A stretch of 34,878 nucleotides of DNA from a virus. Positions 24,909-25,817 of this stretch are shown piece by piece. The notes below the pieces were generated by a model. It was given only the letters and a program-made list of their open reading frames with translations, ran no database searches and was not told the DNA's origin. The stretch is from positions 1 through 34,878 of IMG/VR virus record IMGVR_UViG_3300027977_000106; one strand, 5' to 3'. Position 1 is the first letter of the stretch. Every line of letters starts with the position of its first letter. Both the position numbers and the translations under genes were made by a program.

Positions 24909-24949
24909 GTTCCCATTTTCTGTCTCTTTTCACTTTGCCATGCGTCCTA

Positions 24950-25604
24950 CCCCCCCCAACCTGCGGACAGGTCATCTTGTGTTTCAATTCAGTTTTAGTG
25001 ATCTTCTAATTTCACGAACACGCCCTGCGTCTCCACGACACTCAAAGTGGCTGAACAGGAATGATGATTCCTCTAGTGCTTCAAAACGCGGCACTCTCTC
25101 CGCCCGTCACGGTCTCCATGCTCCGCACCCACCGTTCGCTGCTGTCAGTCATGGCCCCGGCGACGATCTAAGCAATCGGTCTCGTCGCTCCACTTACTCG
25201 GTATTTTCAGTCAGTACCGAGGATTGCTAGTGCTCAATCGATCGGGCAGGATTCGAACCTGCTGCTTGCAGTCTCACGTCGCTAGCGATCTCGTTTGCTC
25301 TAGCGCCGAATTCACACTGGCGACCCAGTTTCGGTTTTAACGTCACAAGCCGTAGCTATTGGCGTGTCCCACCACGCCGCCGATCGCCACGCCAGATTTG
25401 GACGGCGTCACCCTGTCGCGATACTACGCCTTCGAGCCGTCACGACTGCCGGACATCTCAGCGCGGATCTGGTCTTCCGCTGCATAGCATTCATTACTGA
25501 TTGCTAGCCGTTACTTCTTTCACCCCTCCCGCGCAGTGGACTATTAAAAAACTGTGATCCACTACCGCGCCACCGCGCACTAGATAAAGCCATCTACTGC
25601 TTTA
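24950..25604 (-). ncRNA. Candidate large structured RNA
   Basis: About 650 bases between two minus-strand genes hold no supported coding sequence. Many perfect stems can be drawn on the minus strand. TAAAGC/GCTTTA spans 25604-25585. AGTGGA/TCCACT plus GCGC/GCGC spans 25570-25531. GCGGA/TCCGC spans 25480-25463. GACGGC/GCCGTC spans 25441-25401. GGCGTG/CACGCC spans 25378-25361. CTCGGTA/TACCGAG (25221-25197) sits inside CTAGCAATC/GATTGC-TTAG (25230-25168). AGGAAT/ATTCCT (25072-25057) has a CATC loop. GACCTG/CAGGTT (24973-24958) has a UCCG tetraloop. The stretch looks more GC-rich than its surroundings. Large ornate RNAs of phages (GOLLD and ROOL classes) are of this size and are often linked to tRNA-like elements, but I cannot verify homology. 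Confidence 0.5.
25238..25386 (-). ncRNA. tRNA-like element with enlarged central domain
   Basis: On the minus strand a perfect T arm (GCAGG-TTCGAAT-CCTGC, 25262-25246) is followed by CCGATCG and A (25245-25238), which pairs over all seven bases with CGATCGG at 25386-25380. A D-arm-like hairpin (GCGT or GGCGTG with CACGCC) follows the 5' strand. In place of a 17-base anticodon arm there are about 85 bases, closed by GCTTG/CAAGC (25350-25346 with 25268-25264) and holding two hairpins: CCGAA-ACTGG-GTCG-CCAGT...TTCGG and CGCTAG/CTAGCG. No CCA is encoded. It could instead be a phage attachment core copied from a tRNA 3' end, plus a chance acceptor match. Confidence 0.4.
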
Positions 25605-25817
25605 GCCACAACCATGAAACGAATCGAAGTCATCTTCGCCGGTGTCTGGTCGCGTTGGCTTTGTCTTATTCTCAAAAATCACTGCTGCCTCCGAAAGATT
25701 CTTCACGGCAATTTTCAAGTGAGTTGGTAGCCTATCAACTTCAGCTTCAGTAAAAAAGTTCTTTACCTTAATAGCCGCGTTGTTCAGATTGATCTGTGCT
25801 TGTGCGTAATCCGGCAT
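25602..25817 (-). CDS. Small early-type protein, unknown
   Basis: The 71-residue product is helical at the N-terminus (YAQAQINLNNAAIKVKNFF), has a middle with LPTHLKIAVKNLSEAAVIF, and an acidic end with GEDDFDSFHGCG. It has no motif I know. The ATG has a GGAGAGA ribosome binding site just upstream. It is the last gene before the structured noncoding region; its TAA lies in the first hairpin of that region. Confidence 0.6.
   Translation of the reverse strand: MPDYAQAQINLNNAAIKVKNFFTEAEVDRLPTHLKIAVKNLSEAAVIFENKTKPTRPDTGEDDFDSFHGCG

What the first reader, a model, noticed from the sequence alone, without database searches (positions are those of the whole stretch)
24950..25604. Large hairpin-rich noncoding region with tRNA-like T arm: possible ornate phage RNA
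In a genome where most genes overlap, about 650 bases hold no supported gene but show at least eight perfect stems of 5-9 bases on the minus strand, including a hairpin (CTCGGTA/TACCGAG) nested in a 9-base stem and a UCCG-capped hairpin. The first stem includes the stop of the upstream gene. The 9-mer CTAGCAATC occurs twice (25507-25499 and 25230-25222) and could compete for the same partner GATTGC-TTAG, hinting at a switch. GOLLD and ROOL are known classes of large phage-associated RNA of similar size, often linked to tRNAs. This region could be a member or a new class.
Basis: partly seen in the sequence, partly recalled or inferred. Interest (0 to 1): 0.82.

Follow-up and report, generated by a model that had tools for sequence, protein, structure and literature searches.

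The report
Phage tRNA mimic with swapped arm
A gap between genes in this virus of bacteria holds a small RNA that keeps the outer half of a transfer RNA but replaces the code-reading arm with other sequence; dozens of related viruses carry the same kind of RNA, it is in no RNA family library searched, and its job is unknown.

Summary
On the minus strand, 25386-25238 is a tRNA-like RNA: a perfect 7-bp acceptor stem, a D-like hairpin, a canonical T arm (GCAGG-TTCGAAT-CCTGC) and, in place of the anticodon arm, a 98-nt third arm. It is not GOLLD, ROOL, tmRNA or a recognisable tRNA (Rfam, ARAGORN). Pattern scans of IMG/VR recovered 83 related elements (70 distinct third arms), often in tandem or 2-4 nt from real tRNA genes. 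A covariance model built without the window finds 25239-25386 as its only hit (62.7 bits, E 9.5e-14). Acceptor, D and T stems show compensatory changes, and D-loop and T-loop types change together, as expected if the tRNA elbow forms; the third arm is hypervariable. The window also carries a spacer hairpin (25110-25088) identical over 23 nt to one in the tRNA region of cultured phage D6. Cultured Pseudomonas phage Itty13 carries the commoner form of that spacer, followed by an unannotated tRNA-like RNA. The rest of the region folds no better than chance. Best reading: a non-decoding tRNA mimic, probably matured by host tRNA enzymes. The decoy or scaffold function is inferred, and there is no expression evidence.

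The parts
25238..25386 (-). tRNA-like RNA element (whole, with discriminator-like A at 25238)
   Evidence: Only hit in the window of model R1, built without the window: 25239-25386, 62.7 bits, E 9.5e-14. The unconstrained MFE fold gives acceptor, D, third arm and T arm.
25380..25386 (-). 5' acceptor strand CGATCGG
   Evidence: Perfect 7-bp complement to 25245-25239; across the family pair 1:72 appears as GC, CG, AU and UA.
25361..25378 (-). D-arm-like hairpin GGCGTG-GTGGGA-CACGCC
   Evidence: Conserved and covarying in relatives; 71% of members selected without regard to this arm have such a hairpin vs 7% of shuffles.
25263..25360 (-). hypervariable third arm (98 nt) in place of anticodon arm and variable loop
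   Evidence: Predicted to be closed by a helix of GCTTGTGACGT with ACGTGAGACTGCAAGC and to hold two hairpins. Sequence not shared with relatives.
25246..25262 (-). T arm GCAGG-TTCGAAT-CCTGC
   Evidence: 5-bp stem and canonical T loop; covaries in relatives.
25239..25245 (-). 3' acceptor strand CCGATCG
   Evidence: Pairs with 25386-25380.
25088..25110 (-). spacer-hairpin motif GTGACGGGCGGAGAGAGTGCCGC
   Evidence: 23 nt identical to phage D6 noncoding DNA near tRNA genes; variant of GTGACAGCCGGAGAGACGGC, which lies just 5' of a minority of family members and in cultured phages.
25387..25604 (-). 5' flank with hairpins, no excess stability, no relatives found
   Evidence: z -1.01; no similar DNA in phages or plasmids beyond short matches.
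24940..25087 (-). 3' flank up to the downstream gene, no excess structure
   Evidence: z 0.75 for 25080-24940.

Best explanation
The element is a non-decoding tRNA mimic encoded by the phage. Shown by sequence: it keeps the acceptor stem and the D-arm/T-arm elbow of a tRNA and replaces the anticodon arm with a variable third arm. Inferred: it is transcribed with its neighbours, cut at the 5' end by host RNase P and at the 3' end by the host tRNA 3'-processing enzymes, and given CCA, because these enzymes read the acceptor/T-arm half that is kept. Inferred, less certain: the mature RNA acts by engaging host proteins that bind the tRNA elbow or acceptor (for example tRNA-targeting defence proteins or tRNA-handling enzymes) as a decoy or competitor, and the fast-changing third arm either escapes anticodon- or variable-loop-directed attack or carries a lineage-specific payload. 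My split: real structured tRNA-like RNA family 0.95; matured by tRNA enzymes 0.7; decoy or competitor as main function 0.3; scaffold for a third-arm payload 0.25.
For: Independent model hit, E 9.5e-14. Unbiased tests: of relatives chosen only by acceptor-5'/D-arm sequence, 40 of 46 have CCGRTC downstream and 40 of 40 pair at 1:72 (GC 34, CG 2, AU 2, UA 2), against 7 of 36 in bacterial-genome chance hits; of relatives chosen without the D arm, 71% have a D hairpin vs 7% in shuffles and in chance hits. 17 pairs counted on 26 members: 99.8% paired, 5 pairs changed on both sides, 0 of 500 shuffles reach any measure; slid controls at most 46% paired. D-loop and T-loop types co-vary (mutual information 1.56 bits vs permuted maximum 0.69), also among paralogues in one phage. 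Wobble pairs are tolerated, as for RNA. Members lie 2-4 nt from tRNA genes and repeat in tandem; one 204,794-bp phage record has nine model matches. The anticodon region is all but missing in a 62-nt member (L146) and about 30-140 nt long in most others. Phage tRNAs are reported or proposed as counter-defence elsewhere (PMC10264068, PMC11555353), which makes tRNA mimicry by phages plausible.
Against: No expression, processing or binding data. No CCA is encoded. Acceptor positions 2-7 were fixed by my searches, so their conservation is not evidence. The D/T-loop association is not corrected for phylogeny. Third arms are only slightly more structured than shuffles (mean z -1.04, s.e. 0.17), and their closing helix is not above chance (32 of 49 vs 26.7), so a common function of that arm is unproven. 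Nothing directly supports the decoy role.
Confidence: 0.5

Rival explanations
1. A real tRNA gene with an intron in or near the anticodon loop that is removed to give a decoding tRNA.
For: With introns allowed, ARAGORN calls the window element tRNA-Arg(acg) with a 63-nt intron, and 38 such genes in all viral loci. Some relatives (L396, L348, L401, L379) have a canonical D arm and an enlarged anticodon domain.
Against: The calls give inconsistent amino acids (SeC, Pyl, Pro, His...) and intron positions across one family. Many members have a non-canonical D stem and no recognisable anticodon stem, and one member (L146, 62 nt) has no room for an anticodon arm. No group I intron or other Rfam match, and the insert is too short for a group I intron.
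Confidence: 0.1
2. tRNA punctuation: the element serves only as an RNase P/RNase Z cutting signal that separates and stabilises neighbouring phage mRNAs; the third arm is filler.
For: It lies between protein genes on the transcribed strand; only the processing half is conserved; 11 of 20 whole phage records with members have no tRNA-family match.
Against: Strong primary-sequence conservation of D arm and T stem exceeds what RNase P needs; several copies per phage, in tandem, sometimes directly next to real tRNAs that would already punctuate.
Confidence: 0.2
3. Degenerate tRNA pseudogenes inside phage tRNA arrays.
For: Phage tRNA arrays contain odd tRNAs (for example L116 and L141, called tRNA-??? 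by ARAGORN).
Against: Compensatory changes and co-varying loops imply selection on structure. The same acceptor/D-arm/T-arm core recurs across diverse phages.
Confidence: 0.04
4. A GOLLD- or ROOL-like large ornate RNA of about 650 nt, with the tRNA-like part embedded as in some GOLLD RNAs.
For: Size and tRNA link; GOLLD linkers sometimes contain tRNAs and both classes occur near phage tRNA islands (PMC12286853).
Against: No GOLLD or ROOL match at E up to 10 in the region; flanks show no excess stability and no relatives; the family members stand alone in other phages.
Confidence: 0.05
5. A DNA-level element (for example an attachment site copied from a host tRNA, or a replication hairpin).
For: Phage att sites often copy tRNA 3' ends (general knowledge).
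Against: Both acceptor strands are present with an unrelated D arm; copies are tandem with different third arms; wobble pairs are tolerated; no integrase among the window proteins scanned.
Confidence: 0.04

Closest known systems
tRNA (Rfam RF00005), including odd tRNAs of phage tRNA arrays
   Same: 7-bp acceptor, 5-bp T stem, T loop TTCGAAT, D-like hairpin, tight spacing to true tRNAs in some phages.
   Different: No anticodon arm; length 62-189 nt; D stem often 5-6 bp with a non-canonical loop; RF00005 scores the window element 14.3 bits (cut-off 29) and ARAGORN does not call it by default.
tmRNA (RF00023)
   Same: tRNA-like acceptor/T-arm half with a long replacement of the anticodon arm.
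   Different: Much shorter, with a paired D hairpin, variable insert and no tmRNA call from ARAGORN or Rfam.
GOLLD and ROOL phage RNAs
   Same: Phage noncoding RNAs of unknown function found near tRNA islands; GOLLD linkers may hold tRNAs (PMC12286853).
   Different: No sequence or model match; the element is about 149 nt, not 600-800.
Viral tRNA-like structures of plant RNA viruses
   Same: A viral RNA that imitates the acceptor/T half of tRNA.
   Different: There a part of the genomic RNA's 3' end; here a separate unit in DNA phages of bacteria. Comparison from general knowledge, not tested.
Phage tRNAs that evade tRNA-targeting defences (PMC10264068, PMC11555353)
   Same: Phage-encoded tRNA-shaped RNAs; selection on the anticodon region.
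   Different: Those are decoding tRNAs that replace cleaved host tRNAs; these lack a usable anticodon.

Membership tests
tRNA (RF00005) | Reaches the family's curated score | tested here: not met
   14.3 bits vs gathering 29 on the element alone; no hit on the window.
tRNA (RF00005) | Anticodon arm with 5-bp stem and 7-nt loop | tested here: not met
   98-nt branched third arm; ARAGORN calls it only with a 63-nt intron allowed.
tRNA (RF00005) | Acceptor stem and T arm in tRNA geometry | tested here: met
   7-bp and 5-bp stems, 7-nt T loop, contiguous.
tmRNA | tmRNA model match and tag reading frame | tested here: not met
   No ARAGORN tmRNA and no Rfam tmRNA match in the window.
GOLLD / ROOL | Covariance-model match | tested here: not met
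   No match at gathering score (window) or at E up to 10 (region).
intron-containing tRNA | Consistent anticodon and splice position among relatives | tested here: not met
   Inconsistent anticodons and intron positions across the family.
intron-containing tRNA | Spliced product | not testable with these tools
   Needs RNA sequencing.
GATCGG tRNA-like family defined here (model R1) | Match to a model built without this sequence | tested here: met
   62.7 bits, E 9.5e-14; bacterial-genome loci carrying the 5' motif by chance reach at most 35.8 bits.
GATCGG tRNA-like family defined here (model R1) | D-loop type matches T-loop type | tested here: met
   Window GTGGGA with TTCGAAT, as in all 21 members of that D-loop type, the window included.
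RNase P / CCA substrate | 5' cleavage at +1 and CCA addition | not testable with these tools
   Needs biochemistry.

The most novel reading that the evidence does not exclude
Phages of many lineages carry arrays of non-decoding tRNA-shaped RNAs whose elbow and acceptor are held constant while the third arm is swapped freely, so that the tRNA body acts as a natural stabilising and targeting scaffold for lineage-specific payloads or decoys: a distinct class of phage RNA alongside GOLLD and ROOL.
Probability: 0.4. Interest if true: 0.9.

Novelty: new variant of a known kind. Interest (0 to 1): 0.74.

Why it matters
Phage tRNA regions contain much unannotated DNA. If these are stable non-decoding tRNA mimics, standard tRNA finders have missed a recurrent phage gene type, and the long-standing question of why phages carry tRNA arrays gains an answer beyond decoding. 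A cultured phage (Itty13) with a comparable tRNA-like RNA makes the idea testable in the laboratory, and a natural tRNA scaffold with a freely replaceable arm would also be of practical interest for RNA stabilisation.

Tried and rejected
Rfam at gathering and relaxed thresholds: only three weak, implausible matches (snoRNAs, a CRISPR repeat) far below their cut-offs in the region. blastn of the region against phages and plasmids: only short pieces. Relatives through the upstream gene (none), through the DUF6527 gene (142 relatives of the protein, but none of the 80 fetched loci shares the RNA), and through the terminase (one identical 5.5-kb contig without the region). A 29-nt match in L045 lies in apparently coding DNA and was dismissed. 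Genome collection scan: stopped at 120 stretches, none of those checked had the rest of the element; L219, with three model hits, looks like a calcium-binding repeat gene. GOLLD/ROOL, tmRNA, intron, pseudogene and att-site readings were considered and ranked as rivals. Cultured phages by blastn with consensus members: no significant family hit, but weak hits pointed to unannotated tRNA-like RNAs between tRNA genes of Klebsiella phage GlastoCabaret and Mycobacterium phage Reindeer. Literature: no description of this family found in the open library; subscription papers were not searched.

Full report
Setting. The window is a 34,878-base virus record, a tailed phage with terminase, portal, capsid, tape measure, primase, helicase and Sak4-like genes, nearly all on the minus strand. 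The region lies between a 71-aa gene of no known family (25817-25602) and a DUF6527 gene (24908-24642). It has no supported gene and is more G+C-rich than its neighbours.

What is there. A scan for T arms joined to an acceptor strand found one in the whole window: GCAGG-TTCGAAT-CCTGC-CCGATCG on the minus strand ending at 25239, with a single perfect 7-bp partner CGATCGG at 25386-25380. One base after that partner comes a 6-bp hairpin, GGCGTG-GTGGGA-CACGCC, in the place of a D arm. The unconstrained minimum-energy fold of 25386-25238 is a four-arm form with acceptor, D arm, a branched 98-nt third arm and T arm (z -2.0). Flanking stretches fold like shuffles.

Relatives. The 25-mer of the T arm plus 3' acceptor occurs once elsewhere in IMG/VR (L083). 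There the missing acceptor strand is also present (element length 130 nt), and a normal tRNA-Arg begins 2 nt downstream. A gapped pattern on both acceptor strands gave L085 and L088, which share the D hairpin although it was not in the pattern. A D-arm pattern (complete, 51 stretches) and a pattern with free D arm (99 stretches) then gave 83 elements with 70 distinct third arms. Lengths run from 62 to 189 nt. Members occur in tandem (L102, L120, L189, L107, L393) and 2-4 nt from real tRNAs (L107, L108, L329, L083). In 20 whole records the model finds one to nine matches each (some of the weakest are true tRNAs); only 9 of these records have a tRNA-family match. Most loci are linked by at least one shared protein, but ten of 80 share none, so the family spans more than one phage lineage.

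Is it a real structure? Three checks limit circular selection. First, among viral hits chosen only by 5' acceptor plus D arm, 40 of 46 have CCGRTC downstream and all 40 pair at position 1:72 (GC 34, CG 2, AU 2, UA 2); chance hits in bacterial genomes pair in 7 of 36. Second, among hits chosen without the D arm, 48 have fully paired acceptor and T stems and 71% of them carry a D hairpin, against 7% in shuffles and 7% in the remaining chance hits. Third, on a 26-member alignment without the window, 17 pairs are 99.8% formed, five pairs change on both sides, and no shuffle of 500 reaches any measure. A covariance model from that alignment finds 25239-25386 as its only window hit (62.7 bits, E 9.5e-14). 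Loci chosen on the 5' motif in bacterial genomes reach at most 35.8 bits.

Elbow. D-loop and T-loop types go together: GTGGGA(A) with TTCRANT (21 of 21, window included), GACANNGA with TGYRAWT (9 of 11), CGGYAA with TGAAAAY (7 of 7), and CGCAA-like or GATRGA mostly with an 8-nt TAGCCAAT-like loop. Mutual information is 1.56 bits against a permuted maximum of 0.69. Paralogues within one phage differ in type and still mostly match, which weakens but does not remove a purely phylogenetic explanation. This is what selection on a D-loop/T-loop contact would give.

Third arm. It is hypervariable, only slightly more structured than shuffles (mean z -1.04) and not closed by a helix more often than chance. 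Some relatives have a canonical D arm and an enlarged anticodon arm (L396, L348), so a continuum towards tRNA exists.

Spacer motif. GCCGGAGAGACGGC (as part of GTGACAGCCGGAGAGACGGC) occurs 11 times in the 300 nt upstream of members where 0.24 is expected; in several it ends 2-5 nt before the acceptor. The window carries the variant GTGACGGGCGGAGAGAGTGCCGC at 25110-25088, 3' of its own element rather than 5', identical over 23 nt to noncoding DNA near the tRNA genes of phage D6. Cultured phages Itty13, IME1369_02, PSTRCR_117lys and phiM9 carry the motif. In Itty13 it is followed by an unannotated tRNA-like RNA (L411 963-1063) with canonical D and T arms and a 20-nt anticodon loop, inside a longer helix (arms read from the sequence; fold agrees on the outer helix only). 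Model R1 does not match it, so it is an analogue or a distant relative, not a member.

Mechanism. Shown by sequence: the tRNA acceptor/elbow half is kept and the decoding arm is not. Inferred from established tRNA biology: RNase P, the tRNA 3'-processing enzymes and the CCA-adding enzyme recognise exactly that half, so maturation by host enzymes is likely. Inferred and weaker: the RNA works as a decoy or competitor for proteins that bind tRNA, or as a scaffold for its third arm. Phage tRNAs are known or proposed to counter tRNA-targeting defences (PMC10264068, PMC11555353), but those decode; this RNA cannot.

Known or new. It resembles tRNA, tmRNA and, by location, GOLLD/ROOL (PMC12286853), and fails a defining test of each. 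No open paper found describes it. I call it a new variant of a known kind (tRNA-like noncoding RNA), with a real chance that it is a distinct class.

Noticed in passing
L411 963-1063 (Pseudomonas phage Itty13): Unannotated tRNA-like RNA with canonical D and T arms, 20-nt anticodon loop and a long outer helix, in an 880-nt stretch without annotated genes where ARAGORN finds no tRNA; further long helices and a second T arm follow.
   Followed up: partly
L409 688-777 (Klebsiella phage GlastoCabaret): Unannotated tRNA-like RNA with encoded GCCA end (GGAAGAG...CTCTTCC) between annotated tRNA-Leu and tRNA-Ser genes.
   Followed up: partly
L084 1873-4081 (phage D6): About 2.2 kb with only tRNAs annotated but several long-stem hairpins (13-17 bp) between them; the tRNA strand in the record's annotation appears opposite to the readable tRNAs.
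   Followed up: no
L410 130-870 (Mycobacterium phage Reindeer): Several unannotated T-arm sequences upstream of and between annotated tRNAs.
   Followed up: no
L123 2771-2647 (158-kb phage record): A family element whose third arm contains another T-arm-bearing tRNA-like hairpin (GTTGG-TTCGACT-CCAAC): a tRNA-like inside a tRNA-like.
   Followed up: no
L130, L133, L154, L197: Subfamily with D loop GAAAGCAGA in which the T arm is replaced by a hairpin of the kind GCYGGNGTAGCGYCCRGC.
   Followed up: no
L116 4739-4825, L132 3426-3345, L334 8302-8393, L336 7745-7654, L184 12081-12148: A second class of odd tRNA-like RNAs, mostly GCYCCGG-AAGTTAWTGCGG..., lying beside family members, with variable anticodon regions.
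   Followed up: no
window 25394-25388 and 25366-25360 (minus): TGGCGTG just 5' of the element can pair with CACGCCA and so compete with the D-arm strand GGCGTG (25378-25373).
   Followed up: no
window 24940-25610, plus strand: The plus strand folds better than its shuffles (z -3.3, only 20 shuffles) while the minus strand does not (z -1.3).
   Followed up: no
window 24951-24958: A run of eight C (G on the minus strand) just upstream of the downstream gene; possible slippage or sequencing-sensitive tract.
   Followed up: no
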